From assembly GCF_004011865.1 (NCBI RefSeq), contig NZ_RKLP01000008.1, positions 186,001 through 250,000 on the forward strand: a stretch of 64,000 bases of DNA, given 5' to 3'. The notes beneath the pieces were generated by a model. The model saw only the letters and a program-made list of their open reading frames with translations, was not told where the DNA came from and did not search any database. Shown here piece by piece: positions 40,768 through 49,307 of the stretch. Both the position numbers and the translations under genes were made by a program. Position 1 is the stretch's first letter. The number at the start of each line of letters is the position of its first letter. Origin of the DNA: Prescottella agglutinans. GTDB lineage: Bacteria; Actinomycetota; Actinomycetes; Mycobacteriales; Mycobacteriaceae.

Positions 40768-41184
40768 ATGACCACCGCGTCCCCGAACTCCACGCCGTCG
40801 GTCCTGTTCGTGTGCGTGCACAACGCCGGCCGCTCCCAGATGGCCGCCGGATTCCTCACCGCGCTGGCCGGTGACCGGATCGAGGTCCGCTCCGCGGGGA
40901 GCGCGCCGGCGGACCGGGTCAACCCCGCCGCGGCCCTGGCGATGGCCGAGGTCGGCATCGACATCTCGACCCAGACCCCGAAGATCCTCACCGCCGACGC
41001 CGTGCAGGCGTCCGACGTGGTGATCACCATGGGCTGCGGCGACACCTGCCCGGTCTTCCCCGGAAAGTCCTACCGCGACTGGGTGCTCGAAGATCCCGCG
41101 GGCAAGGGCGTCGACGCGGTCAGGCCCATTCGGGACGAGATCCGGTCCCGCGTGGAGGCGCTGATCGCCGAGCTCCTCCGGTAG
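40768..41184 (+). CDS. arsC: Arsenate reductase, low-molecular-weight phosphatase fold
   Basis: 138 residues. Phosphatase-type P-loop VCVHNAGRSQMAAG with nucleophile Cys16; Cys90 and Cys94 in MGCGDTCPVF; the general-acid Asp lies in WVLEDPAGKG. It reduces arsenate to arsenite for export by Acr3. In Actinobacteria such enzymes use either thioredoxin with an internal Cys relay or mycothiol/mycoredoxin; the two extra Cys leave both open. Lies 37 bp after acr3. Confidence 0.92.
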   Translation: MTTASPNSTPSVLFVCVHNAGRSQMAAGFLTALAGDRIEVRSAGSAPADRVNPAAALAMAEVGIDISTQTPKILTADAVQASDVVITMGCGDTCPVFPGKSYRDWVLEDPAGKGVDAVRPIRDEIRSRVEALIAELLR

Positions 41185-41206
41185 TCGGAGCGCGGCGGAG
41201 TGTCGT

Positions 41207-41683
41207 TCAGCAGCAGGATGATTCGTCGGACGAGGACTCCGTCTCGGTGGCGGTGCCGCAGCACACGCCGCTCGCGGGTGAGGCGTCCGCGAGTAGCTGT
41301 GGGCTGGTGCCGAACGTCTCGGAGTCGGCGAGCACGGTGTAGACCTCCCACTTCTCGCCGGCCGGGCCGGTGACCCACACCTTGTCCTGGGTGGCGAAGC
41401 AGCAGGTGGTGCCGATCTCTTCGTCGGTGAACAAGCCCTCGCCGGTGAGGCGGGCGATCTCCTCGTGCACCTTCGTGCTGGATTCGACCTCGACGCCGAG
41501 ATGGTTGATCGTGCCGCCCTTGCCGGGGTTCTCGAGCAGGACCAGCTTGAGCGGCGGCTCAGCGATCGCGAAGTTCGCGTAACCGGGCTTCAACTTGGCC
41601 GGCTGTGTCCCGAACAGTTTCGAGTAGAAGGTGACGGCCTCCTGCAGGTCGTCGACGTTGAGTGCGAGTTGGGCGCGTGACAT
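41207..41683 (-). CDS. arsI: ArsI/CadI family dioxygenase (organoarsenical lyase)
   Basis: 158 residues from the ATG at 41683. A VOC-fold protein with candidate Fe(II) ligands Gln5, His61 and Glu113, and a vicinal Cys94-Cys95 in GTTCCFATQ, the arsenic-binding pair of ArsI C-As lyases, which demethylate methylarsenite. The C-terminal tail is Ser/Cys-rich (VCCGTATETESSSDESSCC) and may bind metal. The name CadI is also used because a mycobacterial homologue is cadmium-induced. Divergent from the second arsR and convergent with arsC. Confidence 0.88.
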   Translation of the reverse strand: MSRAQLALNVDDLQEAVTFYSKLFGTQPAKLKPGYANFAIAEPPLKLVLLENPGKGGTINHLGVEVESSTKVHEEIARLTGEGLFTDEEIGTTCCFATQDKVWVTGPAGEKWEVYTVLADSETFGTSPQLLADASPASGVCCGTATETESSSDESSCC

Positions 41684-41696
41684 GGCTCCACCTATG

Positions 41697-41746
41697 CGAC
41701 ATATATCGAAATACGGGCACATCCAGATTCCCACCTTTTCGACATA
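41697..41746. promoter_or_regulatory. Divergent operator region of arsI and second arsR
   Basis: The 91-bp divergent spacer is AT-rich and holds two copies of CGACATA (41697-41703 and 41740-41746), a motif also found, inverted, at the first arsR start. Likely ArsR binding sites. Confidence 0.55.
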
Positions 41747-41774
41747 AGTCAAGCTCCTTCGGTAGGTTGGTGTC

Positions 41775-42143
41775 ATGCCGAAAGCTCTGCCGATCATCGA
41801 CGTCAGTGGGCCGATCTGCTGCGCACCGGTCTCCGCGGCGCCGATGAGTGACGACGTCGCGCTGCAGGTCGCGCTGCGGTTGAAGGCGCTCGCCGACCCG
41901 GTTCGGATCAAACTCGTGTCGATCCTGCTCACCACCGAGGGTGGGGAGATCTGCACATGCGACCTTGCCACCGGGGTGAACCTCGCGGAATCCACCGTGA
42001 GCCATCACCTCGGTCAACTCAAGAAGGCGGGCATGGTCGAATCGGAACGTCGGGGGATGAACGTCTACTACCGGGCGCGCGGCGAATCGCTCGACGCGCT
42101 CCGTCTCGTGCTCGATCCGAACTGCTGTGGCGGGTCGCGATAG
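41775..42143 (+). CDS. ArsR family metalloid-responsive repressor (second)
   Basis: 122 residues. Winged helix ALRLKALADPVRIKLVSILLTTEGGEICTCDLA with recognition helix ESTVSHHLGQLKKAGMVESE. Three Cys pairs: Cys15-Cys16, Cys60/Cys62 in ICTCDLA, and Cys117-Cys118 near the C-terminus. This density suggests an As(III)-binding sensor of the corynebacterial type with an added C-terminal thiol pair. Divergent from arsI and presumably its repressor. No gene follows it closely. Confidence 0.9.
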   Translation: MPKALPIIDVSGPICCAPVSAAPMSDDVALQVALRLKALADPVRIKLVSILLTTEGGEICTCDLATGVNLAESTVSHHLGQLKKAGMVESERRGMNVYYRARGESLDALRLVLDPNCCGGSR

Positions 42144-42528: not shown

Positions 42529-43761
42529 GTGGCGACCGACGAAGGACGCAAACTGGGCGTCGAGGAGGAGTTCCATCTCATCGACGCGAAGACCCGACGA
42601 CTCGTCACGCGCGCGCCGGAACTGCTCGAGCGGCTGCCCGGGGACGTCTACGTCGAGGAACTGCAGCGCTGTGTCGTGGAGGTCAACAGCGGGGTGTTCT
42701 CGGCCCTGGCCGATCTCCGCGCCGACCTGACCCACCGGCGGCGAGTGCTCGTCGACACCGCCGCCCGGCTCGGCGTCGGGGTGGTGGCCGCGGGCGCGGT
42801 GCCCCTCTCCGTGCCTGCGGAGATGGAGGTCACCGAGACTCCACGGTATCGGCGGATGCTCGCCGACTATCAGCTCCTCGCTCGTGAGCAGTTGATCTGC
42901 GGTACGCAGGTGCACGTGGACGTGGCGGACCGCGACGAGGCCGTGCGCATCGCCAATCGCGTCGCCCCGTACCTGCCGATCTTCCTCGCGCTCAGTGCGA
43001 GTTCACCGTTCTGGGCCGACGGCACCGACACCGGATACGCGAGCATGCGATCGCTGGTGTGGAGCCGCTGGCCCACCACCGGTCCGGCGGCGCCGGTGAA
43101 CTCTGCCGCGGAATACGACCGGCTGATCGCCGACCTCGTCGGGAGCGGTGTGATCAGCGGGCCCGGGATGGTCTACTTCGACCTGAGACCGTCCGATCGG
43201 TATTCGACGCTCGAGCTGCGGGTGTGCGACAGCTGCCCGTCGTTGGACACGATCGTGCTCGTCGCCGGACTGTTCCGCGCGCTCGTCGCTCGCGAGGCTG
43301 CCGCTCTCCGCGACGGCAGTGCGCCGATGCAGGTCTCGCCCACATTGGTGCGCGCGGCCATGTGGCGGGCAGCGCGGTCGGGTCTCGAGGGCGACCTGGT
43401 CGACGTGGAGACTGCGACGCCCCGACCTGCACGGCAGGTGGTGGAGGGTCTCATCCGGTCGCTGCGGCCGCACCTCGAGTCCGCCGGCGACTGGGACGTC
43501 GTCTCCGGGCTGGCAGCCGTCATCCTGCGGGTGGGAAGCTCGTCGGCGCGGCAGCGCGGGATCCTGCGCCGACGGGGGCGCCTGACCGACGTCGTGGACC
43601 TGCTGGCGGCCGAGACCGCCGGCCGCCTGGATCCGCGGGTCGACATCGACGACACGGCGCCGCCCGGCAGCTCGGTCACGAGCTCGTTGCGCGGCGGCGG
43701 TAAGGACACCTGGACCGTGACCGGGCCGTACGACGCGGCCACTTCGGGCGACCGGCGCTGA
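42529..43761 (+). CDS. GCS2-type carboxylate-amine ligase (YbdK family)
   Basis: 410 residues, GTG start at 42529. The N-terminus KLGVEEEFHLID (8-19) and the later ICGTQVHVDVADRDEAVRIANR are the hallmark motifs of the glutamate-cysteine ligase 2 family, which form amide or gamma-glutamyl bonds with ATP. Actinobacteria use mycothiol, so a glutathione role is unlikely. First gene of a four-gene unit with an asparagine-synthase-like amidotransferase 24 bp downstream, which suggests synthesis of a small amidated peptide or amino-acid derivative. Actual substrates unknown. Confidence 0.85.
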   Translation: MATDEGRKLGVEEEFHLIDAKTRRLVTRAPELLERLPGDVYVEELQRCVVEVNSGVFSALADLRADLTHRRRVLVDTAARLGVGVVAAGAVPLSVPAEMEVTETPRYRRMLADYQLLAREQLICGTQVHVDVADRDEAVRIANRVAPYLPIFLALSASSPFWADGTDTGYASMRSLVWSRWPTTGPAAPVNSAAEYDRLIADLVGSGVISGPGMVYFDLRPSDRYSTLELRVCDSCPSLDTIVLVAGLFRALVAREAAALRDGSAPMQVSPTLVRAAMWRAARSGLEGDLVDVETATPRPARQVVEGLIRSLRPHLESAGDWDVVSGLAAVILRVGSSSARQRGILRRRGRLTDVVDLLAAETAGRLDPRVDIDDTAPPGSSVTSSLRGGGKDTWTVTGPYDAATSGDRR

Positions 43762-43784
43762 CGGCCCGGGAGGAGCTGCCGAAC

Positions 43785-45569
43785 ATGTGTGGCATATGCG
43801 GTGAGGTTCGTTTCGACGGGACGACGCCCGACGTGGCCGCGGTGGCCCGGATGACCGACATGATGGTGACACGCGGGCCCGATTCGGCCGGCGCGTACGC
43901 CCGGCAATCGGTGGCGTTCGGTCATCGCCGGCTCTGCATCATCGACCTGTCGGCGCGCGGTGGTCAGCCGATGGTCGACAGCGAACTTCGGTTGTCGCTG
44001 GTGTTCAACGGCTGCATCTACAACTACAAGGAGCTGCGCGCGGAGCTGCAGCAGGCCGGATACCGGTTCTTCTCGACGGCGGACAGCGAGGTGGTACTCA
44101 AGGGCTTCCACCGCTGGGGCGCGGACTGCGTCCACCGATTCAAGGGCATGTTCGCCTTCGCGATACACGAGATCGATTCGGGCGTGGTGACTTTCGCCCG
44201 TGATCGACTGGGGATCAAGCCCCTGTACTTCGCCGAGCGGCCGGGGCGGCTACGGTTCGCCTCGACGCTGCAGGCGCTGTTGCGTGGAGGCGGGATCGAC
44301 ACCACGATCGATCGCGTGGCGCTGCACCACTATCTGAGCTTCGCCGCGGCGGTACCGGCGCCGCGCACCATGTTCGAGGGCGTCCACAAACTCCCACCGG
44401 CGACGATCCGGGTGGTGCGGCCGGACGGAAACTCCACCGAAAGGCGATACTGGGAACCGCGATTCGAGCCGTCGCCCGAACGGGCGTCGTGGACGCCGGT
44501 GCAATGGCAGCACGCCCTCATGGACTCGCTGCGCACGGCGGTGTCGCGACGGATGGTCGCCGATGTTCCCGTGGGGGTGCTGCTGTCGGGCGGCATCGAT
44601 TCCAGCCTGCTCGTGGCCCTCCTTGCCGAACAGGGGCAGCGGGACCTGGCCACGTTCAGCATCGGATTCGACTCGGCCGGAGGTGAATCCGGAAACGAAT
44701 ACTTCTACTCCGACCTGGTGGCGCGGACCTTCGGCACCGCTCACCGGCAGATCCACATCGATCCGTCGCGGCTGCCCGCGGCGGTGCCGAAGACCGTCGA
44801 GGCGATGAGCGAGCCGATGCTCAGCCACGACTGTGTGGCGTTCTTCCTCCTGTCGGAGGAGGTGTCCAGGTCCGTCAAGGTGGTGCAGTCCGGGCAGGGC
44901 GCGGACGAGATCCTCGGCGGCTACCACTGGTATCCGCCGTTGGTGGGGGTGGCGCGGGAACAGTCGGCCGAGGCCTACGCCAAGGTGTACTTCGACCGCA
45001 CCCACGAGGACATCGCAGCCCTGCTCGACCCCGACTACTGCCTCGACCGCGACGTCAGTTCGGAATTCGTCGTCCGGCACCACAGCGCACCGGGTGCCGA
45101 CACCTCCGTCGATGCCGCACTGCGACTCGACACGACGGTGATGCTCGTCGAGGATCCGGTCAAGCGGGTCGACACGATGACGATGGCATGGGGGCTCGAG
45201 GCTCGGGTGCCGTTCCTCGACCACGAGTTCGTGGAGTTGGCGGCCACCTGCCCGCCGGGGCTCAAACTGGCGGGCGACGGCAAGGGCGTGCTGAAGGAGG
45301 CCAGCCGCGGCCTGCTGCCGAACGAGGTGATCGACCGGACCAAGGGCTACTTCCCGGTGCCCGGCATCAGACACCTCGAGGGCGACGTACTCGACCTCGT
45401 GCAGGATTCGCTGCGCAACCGCAGCGCCCGCGATCGACGGCTGTACCGGCCGGAAGCGCTCGACGCGCTGTTCGCCGCGCCCAACGACATCCGCACCGCG
45501 CGCGGCGTGAACACCCTGTGGCAGGTGGGTCTGCTGGAGATGTGGCTGCAGGCGATGGAGCGGTTGTGA
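43785..45569 (+). CDS. N-acetylglutaminylglutamine amidotransferase-like protein (AsnB/AsnO family)
   Basis: 594 residues, RBS GGGAGGAG upstream. N-terminal class-II glutaminase domain with Cys2 (MCGICGE) and FNGCIYNYKELRAEL, and a C-terminal asparagine-synthetase domain with the pyrophosphate loop SGGIDSS (268-274) and SGQGADEILGGYHWYPPL. The length and the C-terminal GYHWYPP segment fit the amidotransferase of the NAGGN osmolyte trio rather than general AsnB. That enzyme makes the terminal amide of N-acetylglutaminylglutamine amide. No Ngg synthetase gene is beside it. Stop overlaps the next start (GTGA). Confidence 0.82.
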   Translation: MCGICGEVRFDGTTPDVAAVARMTDMMVTRGPDSAGAYARQSVAFGHRRLCIIDLSARGGQPMVDSELRLSLVFNGCIYNYKELRAELQQAGYRFFSTADSEVVLKGFHRWGADCVHRFKGMFAFAIHEIDSGVVTFARDRLGIKPLYFAERPGRLRFASTLQALLRGGGIDTTIDRVALHHYLSFAAAVPAPRTMFEGVHKLPPATIRVVRPDGNSTERRYWEPRFEPSPERASWTPVQWQHALMDSLRTAVSRRMVADVPVGVLLSGGIDSSLLVALLAEQGQRDLATFSIGFDSAGGESGNEYFYSDLVARTFGTAHRQIHIDPSRLPAAVPKTVEAMSEPMLSHDCVAFFLLSEEVSRSVKVVQSGQGADEILGGYHWYPPLVGVAREQSAEAYAKVYFDRTHEDIAALLDPDYCLDRDVSSEFVVRHHSAPGADTSVDAALRLDTTVMLVEDPVKRVDTMTMAWGLEARVPFLDHEFVELAATCPPGLKLAGDGKGVLKEASRGLLPNEVIDRTKGYFPVPGIRHLEGDVLDLVQDSLRNRSARDRRLYRPEALDALFAAPNDIRTARGVNTLWQVGLLEMWLQAMERL

Positions 45570-47449
45570 CCGCCCGGGAACCGACGGAACGACAAGGCCG
45601 ACACCACATCCGCTTCACGTCGGGCGCATCGGTGTCGCCCGACGCGACCGGATTCGCCCACCTCGTCGACGACGGGGGATATCCGTGGGCCGTGCAGCGA
45701 TTCCTGTCGGGCCGGCACGGCAGCACGGACCGTCGTGTGGAACTACCCGTGCCCGGTCCCGTCACACGGATCGTGCACTCGGCGGACAGTCTGTGGCTCG
45801 CGTGCCAGATCGCTCCCTACGGCAGCAACCGCACCCAGGTGTGGGTCGTACGAACCGACCCGCACGACCGCTCGGCGCGCCTTGTCGGGTCGCAGCACGC
45901 GGCATCGACCGAGCTGATCGGATGGGACGGGAACCGGTTGGCGCTCACCGCAACCGACGAGGAGGGCGTGGCGGAGGCGCGGTTGGTCGATCCGCACACC
46001 CAGGACGCCGTCGTGCTCGATCGCCGTGTCGGCAGCGTCCTCGTCGACGCGTGGGCCGGATCGGCGCTGCTGCGGGTGGGCCCCCGCGGGCACCGCGAAC
46101 TGCTGCTGCACCGCGACGACGGCAGCCGGATCCCGATGCTGCCGTCGGACTTCGGGTCGACCACCGATGCCGGCGTCATCCTCGACGACCATCGCATCCT
46201 CGGTGTGCTCGGCCAGCACCGGTCGCCGTGGGCGTCGAGCGAAGGCGAACCGGACAAGTACGTCCGCGCGCTCGTGCGCAGCGACAACGGTGCGGAGTTC
46301 GCGCGGCTGCTGGGAGTTGCCGCCTCCGAGCGAGGCGTCTCCTACCGGGTTCTGGCCGAGCGGGACAACTGCGGACTCGACGAGTTCGTCGTCAGCGACG
46401 ATCACGCCACCGTGGCCCTGCTGTGGAACTACAAGGGGCTGAGCGAGTTGCAGATCCTGCATCTCGCGGACGGCACGCTCGACTCGCCGATCCGGTTGCC
46501 GGGGCTGGTGGCATCCGAGCTGAGCATCAGTGCCGACGGCTCGTTGCTGGCGGTCACGGTGCAGGGCCCCGGGATGCCGCCGTCGGTGGAGATCGTCGAC
46601 CCGCGAACGGGCGAGTGGGGTCCGGTGGAACCGGCGCGGACCCGGATCGCCCGGGCCGACGCCCCGATGCTCGTCGAGTTCACCGCGCGCGACGGGCTAC
46701 CCCTGACCGGGTGGCTGTACCGTGCGGGCGGGGACGGCCCCGGGCCGGTGATGCTCTGGTTCCACGGTGGGCCGGAGCTTCAGGAACGCCCGGGATACAG
46801 CGACTACTTTCCCGCGCTCGTCGACGCCGGCATCACGGTCTTCGCGCCCAACGTGCGCGGCTCGGGCGGATTCGGCCGCACCTTCATGCATGCCGACGAG
46901 CGGTACGGCCGATTCGCCGGCATCGACGATGTCGCGGACTGCGTGCGCTACGCCGTCGACAACGGATTCGCCGACCCCGCGCGGATCGCGTGCGCCGGGC
47001 ACTCGTACGGCGGGTACCTGACGCTGGCGGCACTCACGTTCCACCCCGACTTGTTCGCCACGGGCATCGCCATCTGCGGCATGAGCAACCTCGAGACCTT
47101 CTATGCGGACACCGAGCCTTGGATCGCGGCCGCCGCCTATCCCAAGTACGGGCATCCGGAGCACGACCGGGAACTGCTGGCGGAACTGTCGCCGATCCAC
47201 CGCGTCGACGCCCTGAAGGCGCCCCTCCTCGTGGTGCACGGCGCCGCCGACACGAACGTGCCGGTCAGCGAGTCCGAACAGATGGTGGCGGCCGTGCAGG
47301 CTCGGGGCGGCGCCGCCGAACTCCTGTTGTTCGGCGACGAGGGCCACGACATCACCAAGCGTGAGAACCGGGACACGCTCGCGAAGACCATGGTGAACTG
47401 GCTGACCAGCCGGCTGGCCCGGGCCGGCGCCCCGGTGTCGGCGATCTGA
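45566..47449 (+). CDS. S9 family prolyl-oligopeptidase-type peptidase
   Basis: 627 residues from the GTG at 45566, which overlaps the preceding stop by 4 bp. An N-terminal beta-propeller-like region (about 15-370) is followed by an alpha/beta hydrolase domain with nucleophile Ser480 in GHSYGGY, Asp562 in HGAADTNVP and His594 in GDEGHDI. S9 enzymes cleave short peptides; the propeller excludes proteins. No signal peptide, so cytoplasmic. In a peptide-osmolyte pathway it could recycle the product, which is inference. The classical trio uses an M42 peptidase here. Confidence 0.88.
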   Translation: MTAREPTERQGRHHIRFTSGASVSPDATGFAHLVDDGGYPWAVQRFLSGRHGSTDRRVELPVPGPVTRIVHSADSLWLACQIAPYGSNRTQVWVVRTDPHDRSARLVGSQHAASTELIGWDGNRLALTATDEEGVAEARLVDPHTQDAVVLDRRVGSVLVDAWAGSALLRVGPRGHRELLLHRDDGSRIPMLPSDFGSTTDAGVILDDHRILGVLGQHRSPWASSEGEPDKYVRALVRSDNGAEFARLLGVAASERGVSYRVLAERDNCGLDEFVVSDDHATVALLWNYKGLSELQILHLADGTLDSPIRLPGLVASELSISADGSLLAVTVQGPGMPPSVEIVDPRTGEWGPVEPARTRIARADAPMLVEFTARDGLPLTGWLYRAGGDGPGPVMLWFHGGPELQERPGYSDYFPALVDAGITVFAPNVRGSGGFGRTFMHADERYGRFAGIDDVADCVRYAVDNGFADPARIACAGHSYGGYLTLAALTFHPDLFATGIAICGMSNLETFYADTEPWIAAAAYPKYGHPEHDRELLAELSPIHRVDALKAPLLVVHGAADTNVPVSESEQMVAAVQARGGAAELLLFGDEGHDITKRENRDTLAKTMVNWLTSRLARAGAPVSAI

Positions 47450-47465
47450 CGGGGGTGCCTCGAGG

Positions 47466-48596
47466 ATGCCTATCGATCACGACCGGCTCGTCGCGTGGCG
47501 GCGGGATCTGCACACCCACCCCGAACTGTCCTTCTCGGAATTCCGGACGACCGCACTGGTGCACGATCATCTGCGCTCGCTGGGACTCGATCCGGTGATC
47601 CTGCCCGGCGGGACGGGACTGTGGTGCGACGTCGGCCCCGACACCCGGACGTGCGTCGCGTTGCGGGCCGACCTCGACGCGCTCCCGCTGACGGAGACCA
47701 CCGGGGTGCCCTACGCCTCCGCGATCGAGGGCGTGTGCCACGCGTGCGGGCACGACGCGCACACCGCGATGCTTCTCGAAGCCGCGACCGTGCTTGCCGC
47801 CGAGCCCCCTCCGCAGCGGGTGCGGTTGATCTTCCAGCCCGGCGAGGAAACGACCCCGGGGGGCTCCCTCGAGGTCGTGGCGGCGGGCGCACTCGAGGGC
47901 GTCTCGCGGATCTTCGCCCTGCACTGCGCACCACAACTCGAGGTCGGCAAACTCGCCACGCGCGCGGGCCCGATCACCTCGTCCGGTGCCATGCTCACGG
48001 TGCGGTTGTCCTCCGCGGGCGGACATTCGGCGCGTCCGCACCTGACGGGCGATCTGATCCACGCCGCGGCCGTGCTGGTGACCGGGCTGGCGTCGGTGCT
48101 CGATCGCCGGATCGACGCTCGGACCGCCACCGTCCTGACATGGGGACGGATCCAGGCCGGCCGGGTCGGCAACGCCATTCCGGAGTCGGGGGAACTGGTG
48201 GGCACCCTGCGCAGCGCGGCACACGAGACGTGGGCCACGGTGGAACCGCTGGTGCGGCGCGCCGTCGCAGACCTCCTCGCCCCCTACGGCGTCGACCACG
48301 AACTGGACTACGTGCAGGGCGTGCCGCCGGTGGTCAACGACCCCGAGGCCACCGGCGAGCTGATCTCCGCGATCGCGTCCGTCGTGGGGCTCGAGAATCT
48401 GGCCGAGGCCGGACAGTCAAGCGGCGGCGAGGACTTCGCGTGGTATCTCGAACACGTCCCGGGCGCCATGGCACGCCTGGGCGTCTGGGACGGCAGCAGC
48501 CCGCGACACGACCTGCACACCCCGGACTTCGACCTGGACGAGCGCGCCCTCGGGTACGGGGTGCGCACGCTGCTCGCCCTCGCCTACGGCGGGTAG
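47466..48596 (+). CDS. M20 family amidohydrolase
   Basis: 376 residues. Motifs DLHTHPELSFSE (14-25) and CHACGHDAHT (91-100) with Cys/His/Asp metal ligands, and the later SSGGEDFAWY segment, are those of the M20D amidohydrolases (hippurate hydrolase, N-acyl-amino-acid or N-acetyl-diaminopimelate deacylases). It removes an acyl group from an amino acid or small peptide, using two metal ions. Lies 16 bp after the S9 gene; fourth gene of the unit. A deacylase would suit turnover of an N-acetylated dipeptide. Confidence 0.9.
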   Translation: MPIDHDRLVAWRRDLHTHPELSFSEFRTTALVHDHLRSLGLDPVILPGGTGLWCDVGPDTRTCVALRADLDALPLTETTGVPYASAIEGVCHACGHDAHTAMLLEAATVLAAEPPPQRVRLIFQPGEETTPGGSLEVVAAGALEGVSRIFALHCAPQLEVGKLATRAGPITSSGAMLTVRLSSAGGHSARPHLTGDLIHAAAVLVTGLASVLDRRIDARTATVLTWGRIQAGRVGNAIPESGELVGTLRSAAHETWATVEPLVRRAVADLLAPYGVDHELDYVQGVPPVVNDPEATGELISAIASVVGLENLAEAGQSSGGEDFAWYLEHVPGAMARLGVWDGSSPRHDLHTPDFDLDERALGYGVRTLLALAYGG

Positions 48597-48683: not shown

Positions 48684-49307
48684 TTGGGGTTCTACACGGA
48701 TCGGATCGTTCCGCGCCTGGTGGACGTCTCGTGTGGGAACTCGCTGACCGAAGCGTCGAGGAAGCGGGTATGCGCGGGCCTTCACGGTCGCGTGATCGAG
48801 ATCGGGTTCGGTTCGGGTCTCAACGTCCCCTTCTACCCGGAGGCCGTCGATTCCGTCAGCGCCGTCGAACCGGCCGACGAAGCGTGGAGGCTGGCGCGTG
48901 AACGGCTCGCTCACGCCAGTGTCCCGGTCGAGCGATCGGGACTCGACGGTCAGTCACTTCCGTTCTCCGACAACACCTTCGAAACCGCCCTGTCCACGTG
49001 GACGATGTGCACCATCCCCGACGTCCATGCCGCGTTGAACGAGGTGCGGCGAGTCCTGAAACCCGGCGGCACCCTCCATTTCGTCGAGCACGGACTCGCG
49101 CCCCACCCGAAGGTTCAGCGCTGGCAGCGCCGGCTCGAGCCGATCCAGAAAGTCGTCGCCGGCGGTTGCCACATCACGCGCGAGATTCCCGACCTCATTC
49201 GGGCCGCAGGCTTCGAGATCCGTGACCTGGACACGTTCTACGAGAAGGGTGCGCCGAAGATCATGGGAGCCCTCTCACTCGGGGTCGCAGAGCCCATTGC
49301 TGATTGA
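48684..49307 (+). CDS. Class I SAM-dependent methyltransferase
   Basis: 207 residues, TTG start at 48684 with AGGGGG 6 nt upstream. SAM motif VIEIGFGSGLNVPFY (about 32-46), motif II around SALSTWTMCTIPD, motif III LKPGGTLHFVEHGLAP. The opening DRIVPRLVDVSCGNS and the FVEHG pattern match a widespread actinobacterial type (UbiE/thiol- or lipid-methyltransferase-like). Substrate unknown. It lies 87 bp after the M20 gene; inclusion in that operon is uncertain. Confidence 0.85.
   Translation: MGFYTDRIVPRLVDVSCGNSLTEASRKRVCAGLHGRVIEIGFGSGLNVPFYPEAVDSVSAVEPADEAWRLARERLAHASVPVERSGLDGQSLPFSDNTFETALSTWTMCTIPDVHAALNEVRRVLKPGGTLHFVEHGLAPHPKVQRWQRRLEPIQKVVAGGCHITREIPDLIRAAGFEIRDLDTFYEKGAPKIMGALSLGVAEPIAD

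What the first reader, a model, noticed from the sequence alone, without database searches (positions are those of the whole stretch)
42529..48596. Four-gene unit resembling a dipeptide-osmolyte (NAGGN) system without its usual synthetase
A GCS2-type ligase, an amidotransferase matching the NAGGN trio amidotransferase, an S9 peptidase and an M20 amidohydrolase lie in one direction with gaps of 24, -4 and 16 bp. In known NAGGN clusters the amidotransferase is next to an N-acetylglutaminylglutamine synthetase (acetyltransferase plus ATP-grasp) and an M42 peptidase. Here neither is present; a GCS2 ligase and S9/M20 enzymes take their places. This may be a variant pathway for an amidated, possibly acylated, gamma- or alpha-glutamyl peptide with its own turnover enzymes.
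Basis: partly seen in the sequence, partly recalled or inferred. Interest (0 to 1): 0.78.

Follow-up and report, generated by a model that had tools for sequence, protein, structure and literature searches.

The report
Osmolyte-peptide operon with trimmed ligase
This bacterium carries a four-gene operon that looks like a known route to a salt-protecting small peptide, but with a different peptide-making enzyme that has lost half of its ancestral form, so it probably makes a related and still unidentified peptide.

Summary
The four genes are there as described. The amidotransferase (AMD) is TIGR03104 (926 bits, cut-off 570), yet the genome has no NGG synthetase (TIGR03103) over cut-off and no M42 peptidase (TIGR03106) match, and AMD lies far from AsnB. 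The missing synthetase has a history. In relatives the GCS2 gene is one ORF fused to a circularly permuted ATP-grasp (CP-ATP-grasp), usually followed by AMD and the S9 peptidase. Of 101 AMD loci classed, 43 have GCS2 with CP-ATP-grasp (one ORF in 43 of 43), 19 GCS2 alone, 27 NGG, 12 neither; none has both GCS2 and NGG. The window's GCS2 is an in-frame deletion of about 456 codons from such a fusion; its last 33 residues derive from the ATP-grasp's C-terminus. The sister lineage keeps the long gene. The four remaining genes evolve under purifying selection. I read this as a NAGGN-like system for an amidated glutamyl/glutaminyl peptide with another synthetase and peptidase, here cut down to one ligase. 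The product (perhaps a gamma-glutamyl dipeptide amide) and the osmolyte role are inferred, not shown. New variant of a known kind.

The parts
42529..43761 (+). GCS2 (YbdK/TIGR02050-type) carboxylate-amine ligase, 410 aa; a deletion derivative of a GCS2-CP-ATP-grasp fusion
   Evidence: PF04107 181 bits, TIGR02050 283 bits; 70% identical to the fusion's GCS2 domain in L053; nested among the fusions
43660..43758 (+). Remnant of the CP-ATP-grasp C-terminus (codons 378-410) after a deletion of about 456 codons; junction at 43659/43660
   Evidence: Only match in the whole genome (E 0.001) to the ATP-grasp domain of sister locus L049: 43645-43752, E 1.1e-4, 56% over 38 aa; junction compared with L049 and L045
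43785..45569 (+). AMD: glutamine-hydrolysing amidotransferase of the AsnO/TIGR03104 type
   Evidence: 926.6 bits against cut-off 570.1; C2, S268, G269, G270, D272, S273 invariant in 20 aligned orthologues; 59% identical to the AMD beside ngg in a Sinorhizobium meliloti replicon
45566..47449 (+). S9-family peptidase; nearest solved structures by sequence are acylaminoacyl-peptidase-like
   Evidence: PF00326 169 bits; best PDB sequence matches 5l8s, 2qzp, 1ve6; S9 found in 56 of 62 GCS2-linked and 0 of 27 NGG-linked loci
47466..48596 (+). M20 (TIGR01891) amidohydrolase, seen beside AMD only in this genus
   Evidence: TIGR01891 320 bits; PDB sequence matches YxeP 1ysj, 4ewt, IAA-amino-acid hydrolase 1xmb, N-alpha-acyl-glutamine aminoacylase 6slf

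Best explanation
This is a NAGGN-like biosynthesis-and-turnover unit with an exchanged synthetase. Shown: AMD belongs to the NAGGN amidotransferase family but to a sub-clade whose usual partners are a GCS2 ligase, mostly fused to a CP-ATP-grasp ligase, and an S9 peptidase, instead of NGG and an M42 peptidase; in this genus an M20 gene is added and the ATP-grasp domain was deleted in frame, leaving a short tail. Inferred: GCS2 activates a glutamate (or similar) carboxylate with ATP and joins it to an amino acid, most likely as a gamma-glutamyl dipeptide; AMD turns the free C-terminal carboxylate into an amide with ammonia from glutamine; S9 and M20 take the product apart when it is no longer needed. 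In the ancestral form the ATP-grasp made a second amide bond; this lineage makes the simpler product. A gamma-linked dipeptide amide keeps one ammonium and one carboxylate and is net neutral without N-acetylation, which would explain why no acetyltransferase is linked. A compatible-solute role is the likeliest use.
For: AMD over the TIGR03104 cut-off and separated from AsnB by a very long branch. No NGG over cut-off in the window's genome; in 4 of 61 genomes NGG is over cut-off, and in those 4 it lies next to AMD by coordinates. Contexts of 101 AMD loci: 43 GCS2+CP-ATP-grasp, 19 GCS2 alone, 27 NGG, 12 neither; no locus with GCS2 and NGG. Fusion in one ORF in 43 of 43; Pfam shows GCS2 + PF14403/PF04174 in 4 of 4 scanned. 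The 73 AMDs not linked to NGG form one clade (SH-aLRT 92, quick tree). Six short forms of the genus are one clade (100/100) with the long fusion L049 as sister. dN/dS 0.117 (GCS2), 0.105 (AMD), 0.114 (S9), 0.122 (M20) over 21 pairs of 7 genomes. Of 188 AMD positions at least 95% conserved in both the 27 NGG-linked and the 73 other rows, none differs, which fits a similar acceptor.
Against: No biochemistry or metabolite data for a GCS2-type unit were seen. The 188-position result is weak: single NGG clades differ from the rest at 3, 4 and 6 fixed positions and from one another at 41, 50 and 72, so the mixed NGG set filters such positions out. 7 of 101 AMD loci have S9 but no GCS2, CP-ATP-grasp or NGG in the stretch (some stretches are short), and 2 have none of these; G128 has AMD and S9 but no close GCS2. 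2 of 11 genomes with a close GCS2 orthologue have no AMD at E 1e-150. One genus carries a second AMD, and in three of its genomes read an AMD lies beside a distant GCS2, so the two types are exclusive by locus, not by genome. A SigF-like promoter motif is not enriched upstream (3 of 62 against a random mean of 3.85; strict form 0 of 62). Gamma-linkage and osmolyte role are inference only.
Confidence: 0.55

Rival explanations
1. The unit makes NAGGN itself or a near copy: GCS2 (with or without the CP-ATP-grasp) replaces NGG, and an unlinked acetyltransferase or none caps the dipeptide.
For: No fixed difference between NGG-linked and other AMDs at 188 shared conserved positions; by sequence S9 and M20 resemble enzymes of N-blocked peptides and N-acyl amino acids.
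Against: Outside the window's genus no neighbour family is shared by more than 6 of 54 GCS2-type loci, so no GNAT gene is generally linked; GCS2 enzymes usually activate the gamma-carboxylate (recalled), whereas NAGGN is alpha-linked (recalled).
Confidence: 0.2
2. The product is not an osmolyte but another small amidated peptide, for example a redox buffer, a signal, a nitrogen store or a specialised metabolite.
For: GCS2 includes thiol-pathway ligases; patchy distribution (22 of 61 genomes have the AMD orthologue); no stress promoter motif found.
Against: AMD family shared with NAGGN; Frankia proteins assigned to NAGGN synthesis rise under PEG (passage in PMC5768760; which type of unit those genes belong to was not checked).
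Confidence: 0.2
3. The unit is decaying: after losing the ATP-grasp domain it no longer makes a useful product.
For: Loss of a whole ligase domain; the leftover tail differs between species and is gone in L047; G008 (L057) has frame-broken AMD, S9 and M20, as well as neighbouring genes, which may be assembly error.
Against: Intact frames and dN/dS near 0.11 for all four genes in 7 genomes; ATP-grasp-less GCS2 beside AMD is also found in Streptomyces and in Nonomuraea/Microbispora.
Confidence: 0.05

Closest known systems
NAGGN (asnO-ngg, often with M42) osmolyte system, TIGR03104/TIGR03103/TIGR03106
   Same: Same amidotransferase family; ligase-amidotransferase-peptidase layout
   Different: No NGG over cut-off and no M42 match in the genome; GCS2 ligase, S9 peptidase and M20 instead; AMD in a separate sub-clade
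GCS2-CP-ATP-grasp / AMD / S9 units of Mycobacterium, Actinoplanes, Micromonospora, Frankia, Pseudonocardia and others (seen here)
   Same: Orthologous GCS2, AMD and S9, mostly in the same order
   Different: The window lacks the ATP-grasp domain and has an added M20
Streptomyces GCS2 / AMD / hydrolase trio, e.g. S. fungicidicus plasmid p1, annotated glutamate--cysteine ligase, N-acetylglutaminylglutamine amidotransferase, alpha/beta fold hydrolase
   Same: ATP-grasp-less GCS2 beside AMD and an S9-type hydrolase
   Different: Separate lineage in the GCS2 tree (ten other Streptomyces), no M20 beside it, no ATP-grasp tail seen in the ten GCS2 ends printed
Frankia 'asnO-ngg' clusters (PMC5563000, passages read)
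   Same: AsnO over 60% identical to others but putative Ngg under 15% identical; a dipeptidase gene between them, which resembles the AMD-S9-ligase order of L173, L174 and L064
   Different: The authors call the synthetase Ngg; that it is a CP-ATP-grasp or GCS2 protein is my inference, not tested on their strains

Membership tests
NAGGN system | TIGR03104 amidotransferase | tested here: met
   926.6 bits against cut-off 570.1
NAGGN system | NGG synthetase TIGR03103 (GNAT + ATP-grasp) | tested here: not met
   Best own-genome score 33 bits against 569
NAGGN system | M42 peptidase TIGR03106 | tested here: not met
   No match at E 0.001. M42 confirmed in 3 of 3 NGG-type loci scanned, but the S. 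meliloti pair read has none beside it, so this feature is not universal
NAGGN system | Product NAGGN, osmotic induction | not testable with these tools
   Needs metabolite analysis
Asparagine synthetase B | Groups with AsnB | tested here: not met
   100 AMD rows on the other side of a very long branch from 4 AsnB rows
GCS2-CP-ATP-grasp ligase fusion | GCS2 domain of the fusion clade | tested here: met
   Tree, 70% identity
GCS2-CP-ATP-grasp ligase fusion | CP-ATP-grasp domain PF14403/PF04174 | tested here: not met
   No PF14403 match in G000 at E 0.001; no PF04174 match in the window's GCS2 protein; only a 38-aa tail matches the L049 domain
S9 acylaminoacyl peptidases | S9 catalytic domain | tested here: met
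   PF00326 169 bits; nearest PDB sequences
S9 acylaminoacyl peptidases | Release of N-blocked amino acids | not testable with these tools
   Needs an assay
M20 amidohydrolases (TIGR01891) | Family score over cut-off | tested here: met
   320 against 153.75 bits. Substrate not tested

The most novel reading that the evidence does not exclude
The NAGGN amidotransferase works with interchangeable synthetases, and many actinobacteria whose amidotransferase carries the NAGGN name make other amidated glutamyl peptides: tripeptide-like products where GCS2 and CP-ATP-grasp act together, and, in this genus, Streptomyces and Nonomuraea/Microbispora, a gamma-glutamyl dipeptide amide made by GCS2 alone that serves as a neutral compatible solute without acetylation. 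AMD adapted in parallel (position 573 changed in all three groups that lack the ATP-grasp).
Probability: 0.3. Interest if true: 0.75.

Novelty: new variant of a known kind. Interest (0 to 1): 0.56.

Why it matters
Public annotation calls the amidotransferase of such a unit a NAGGN enzyme (S. fungicidicus), so NAGGN production may be over-assigned in actinobacteria. The comparison separates two locus types that did not overlap in 101 loci and shows that the two ligase domains can be lost separately, which makes the product testable. If confirmed, it gives a new class of bacterial compatible solute or amidated glutamyl peptide, plus a natural series (intact fusion, altered fusion, deletion) for studying how a two-ligase enzyme is reduced to one.

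Tried and rejected
Rejected: AMD as ordinary AsnB; a hidden NGG or CP-ATP-grasp elsewhere in the genome; the Mycobacterium smegmatis pair MSMEG_2593-2594 as a member of the GCS2 type: I first took MSMEG_2594 (listed in a SigF regulon table) for a relative, but MSMEG_2593 is listed as a GNAT-family acetyltransferase, so that pair looks like the NGG type.

Led nowhere: search for a SigF-like promoter upstream of the units, no enrichment; search for a further shared neighbour of GCS2-type loci: outside the window's genus nothing was shared by more than 6 of 54 loci, the widest being one gene after S9 in six Pseudonocardiaceae. Paper searches (listings seen) showed no description of the GCS2-CP-ATP-grasp/AMD/S9 combination; most subscription papers are not held, and long listings were cut (40 of 114; 15 of 39; 15 of 20). 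Two papers that I recall as central, Sagot 2010 on NAGGN and Iyer 2009 on amidoligases, were not held under the ids that I tried; Iyer 2009 may already mention GCS2-ATP-grasp neighbourhoods. Structure prediction of AMD could not be run: machine busy, then dropped.

Rows dropped: L057 (G008, frame-broken) was left out of the AMD tree and of the DNA tree and dN/dS. In one search (ATP-grasp tree) some 'other' rows look misframed (very long branches), so I draw nothing from that tree. The position-573 result is post hoc.
Full report
OBSERVATION. The four ORFs are present at the stated places, all on the + strand: GCS2 42529-43761, AMD 43785-45569, S9 45566-47449, M20 47466-48596. Family scores: GCS2 PF04107 and TIGR02050/NF010041; AMD TIGR03104 926.6 bits (cut-off 570.1); S9 PF00326; M20 TIGR01891. 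The genome (G000, 5.4 Mb, 22 contigs, completeness 100) has one TIGR03104 match over the cut-off, no TIGR03103 over the cut-off (best 33 bits) and no TIGR03106 match.

RELATIVES. Among 61 genomes (own plus 60 relatives), 60 have some match to AMD, but only 22 have a close one (60% identity or more); the others listed are mostly AsnB-like at about 30-40%, short pieces up to 52% (its list was cut). NGG over the cut-off occurs in 4 of the same 61 genomes; all four are among the 22, with NGG next to AMD by coordinates. I read neighbourhoods of 20 of the other 21 AMD carriers, 16 kb each, 11.9 kb for G019 (G057 was not fetched). Eight genomes of the genus, the window's included, have GCS2-AMD-S9-M20. 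In six other genera of the family, in three genomes of other families, and in one of those eight (L049, G006), about 1.4-1.5 kb lies between the GCS2 hit and AMD.

THE MISSING HALF. That stretch continues the GCS2 frame: GCS2 is fused to a second domain in open frames of about 860-920 codons. Pfam names it CP_ATPgrasp_2/CP_ATPgrasp_1 (PF14403: 380, 401, 358 and 430 bits in the four scanned). In six same-genus loci besides the window the frame is only 377-434 codons from stop to stop; in the window, L045 and L057 it ends like the last residues of the fusion, in L046, L048 and L050 this end is shorter or altered, and in L047 it is gone. Searching the whole genome with the ATP-grasp domain of L049 gives one match: window 43645-43752, 56% identity over 38 residues, E 1.1e-4. 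PF14403 finds nothing at E 0.001 in G000 and five other genomes of the genus, and one gene in G006, L049's genome. Lining up the two genes puts the junction at 43659/43660: 456 codons of L049 are absent and the frame is kept. So the short gene is a deletion derivative, not a stand-alone GCS2 that was recruited.

ORDER OF EVENTS. A DNA tree of AMD+S9+GCS2 puts six short-form genomes in one clade (100/100), with the long fusion L049 as sister. L049 also has M20, so M20 probably came before the deletion. L049's own ATP-grasp lacks a stretch that the twelve other fusions printed keep (one of 82 positions at least 95% conserved falls in it) and has a Gly-to-Asp change in a glycine-rich stretch, whereas its GCS2 departs at 0 of 87 such positions; but its total of 4 departures of 82 is not outstanding among the 43 fusions (maximum 8), so decay before deletion is only suggested. 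dN/dS (NG86, 21 pairs of 7 genomes): GCS2 0.117, AMD 0.105, S9 0.114, M20 0.122: purifying selection on all four.

HOW WIDE. With the 20 neighbourhoods and the window, 101 loci were classed by tblastn (over 150 bits; NGG over 400): GCS2+CP-ATP-grasp 43 (one ORF in 43 of 43), GCS2 alone 19 (7 in the genus, 10 Streptomyces, 2 Streptosporangiaceae), NGG 27, CP-ATP-grasp+S9 without GCS2 3, S9 without any of the ligases 7, none 2. No locus has GCS2 and NGG together. S9 is present in 56 of 62 GCS2 loci and 0 of 27 NGG loci; some stretches end early at contig ends. M20 is found only in the genus (8 of 101). A cluster of neighbour ORFs found in 17 of 27 NGG loci is M42: 3 of 3 scanned are TIGR03106 over the cut-off. 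Outside the window's genus no other neighbour family is shared by more than 6 of 54 GCS2 loci (families in at least 6 of the 101 loci were looked at). Is the ATP-grasp elsewhere in the genomes with short GCS2? PF14403: of 7 Streptomyces genomes 5 have none, 1 a match under the cut-off, 1 a gene not beside AMD; the Nonomuraea and Microbispora genomes have none; but Planobispora siamensis (L107, no GCS2 beside AMD) has a fusion-sized ORF with both domains elsewhere.

TREES. AMD: 100 AMD rows against 4 AsnB rows. The 73 not linked to NGG form one clade (SH-aLRT 92); NGG-linked rows lie outside it. GCS2: short forms lie in three places among the fusions; strongly supported branches force at least two changes. 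The reverse loss exists too: G054 keeps a CP-ATP-grasp ORF in the order AMD-S9-CP-ATP-grasp, and its genome's only GCS2 match is weak and partial (24 bits, 61 positions, just over Pfam's cut-off of 21), while G100 and G169 of the same genus carry both ligases in different frames in the order AMD-S9-GCS2-CP-ATP-grasp.

EXCEPTIONS. In 150 genomes of the order, 69 have AMD at E 1e-150 and 11 have a close GCS2 orthologue (E below 1e-115); 9 of these 11 have AMD. The two others (G103, G168) are fragmented; in G168 the fusion is followed directly by S9, in G103 neither AMD nor S9 was found in the stretch read. G128 has AMD and S9 (72% and 52%) without such a GCS2. Eight genomes of one genus have two AMDs; in three genomes of that genus that I read (two of these eight, plus G180) an AMD of about 57-58% identity lies beside a more distant GCS2 (about 40%) without ATP-grasp or S9 in the stretch. 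So exclusivity holds by locus, not always by genome.

WHAT AMD SEES. Of 188 AMD positions at least 95% conserved in both the NGG-linked (27) and the other (73) rows, none differs; between all AMD rows and the 4 AsnB rows 46 of 140 differ. This fits a similar acceptor, probably a small peptide ending in glutamine or a similar residue. It is weak: single NGG clades differ from the rest at 3, 4 and 6 fixed positions and from one another at 41-72. One position stands out: 573 (Leu in 27 of 27 NGG-linked and 40 of 43 fusion-linked rows) is changed in all three groups with ATP-grasp-less GCS2 (Arg in the genus and Streptomyces, Thr in Nonomuraea/Microbispora) and in none of six fusion-keeping groups compared; it is the only one of 249 conserved positions shared by any two of the three. 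The chance of any such triple overlap is about 0.0045 in a simple draw, post hoc. Against a strict link: L049, which still has the domain, already has Arg, and Planobispora (Val) has an unlinked fusion.

TURNOVER ENZYMES. By sequence the nearest solved structures of S9 are acylaminoacyl-peptidase-like, and those of M20 include YxeP, an IAA-amino-acid hydrolase and an N-alpha-acyl-glutamine aminoacylase. GCS2's only two PDB matches are the YbdK proteins 1tt4 and 1r8g. These hint at hydrolysis of blocked peptides and acyl-amino acids; none fixes the substrate.

MECHANISM. Best reading: GCS2 makes a glutamyl dipeptide, AMD amidates it, S9 and M20 recycle it; the ancestral fusion made a second bond. 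That GCS2 enzymes act on the gamma-carboxylate, and that a gamma-linked dipeptide amide is net neutral without acetylation, is knowledge that I recall and apply as inference.

LITERATURE. In PMC5563000 (passages read) Frankia AsnO is over 60% identical to AsnO of other species, but the putative Ngg is under 15% identical and a dipeptidase gene lies between them: I take this as an earlier sighting of the same kind of unit, under the NAGGN name. PMC5768760 (passages) reports PEG-raised Frankia proteins assigned to NAGGN synthesis. PMC4694148 (passages) lists MSMEG_2594 in a SigF regulon table, and PMC5445863 (a table passage; what the columns compare was not seen) lists MSMEG_2593 as a GNAT protein beside it; this pair looks like the NGG type. 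PDB and RefSeq names aside, S. fungicidicus shows the NAGGN label on a GCS2-type unit. The AMD next to ngg in S. meliloti is 59% identical to the window's.

VERDICT.

Noticed in passing
window 48684-49307: A class-I methyltransferase gene starts 87 bp after M20; its relative lies beside M20 in 6 of the 7 other same-genus loci read. It could be a fifth gene that methylates the product.
   Followed up: partly
window 40768-42143: Arsenic-type genes just upstream: LMW-phosphatase/arsenate-reductase-like (40768-41184 +), ArsI/CadI-type VOC protein (41207-41995 -, with about 106 N-terminal residues outside the family match, so its start may be annotated too early) and, read by eye from the DNA, an ArsR-like HTH end on the + strand near 41950-42143.
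   Followed up: no
L170, L171, L172: A more distant AMD (about 57-58%) beside a stand-alone distant GCS2 in one genus of the order; 8 genomes of this genus have two AMDs.
   Followed up: partly
L177 (G168, fragmented genome): GCS2-CP-ATP-grasp fusion followed directly by S9 without AMD between them.
   Followed up: no
L069, L070, L071: Open frames of 950-964 codons in G054, G039 and G044 match only the ATP-grasp half of TIGR03103 (186-193 bits); a cyanophycin-synthetase-like protein is possible, as the ATP-grasp half of an NGG also matches that family.
   Followed up: no
L075: A contig labelled Nevskia (Pseudomonadota, MAG) carries a unit that groups with Mycobacterium; probably a binning error.
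   Followed up: no
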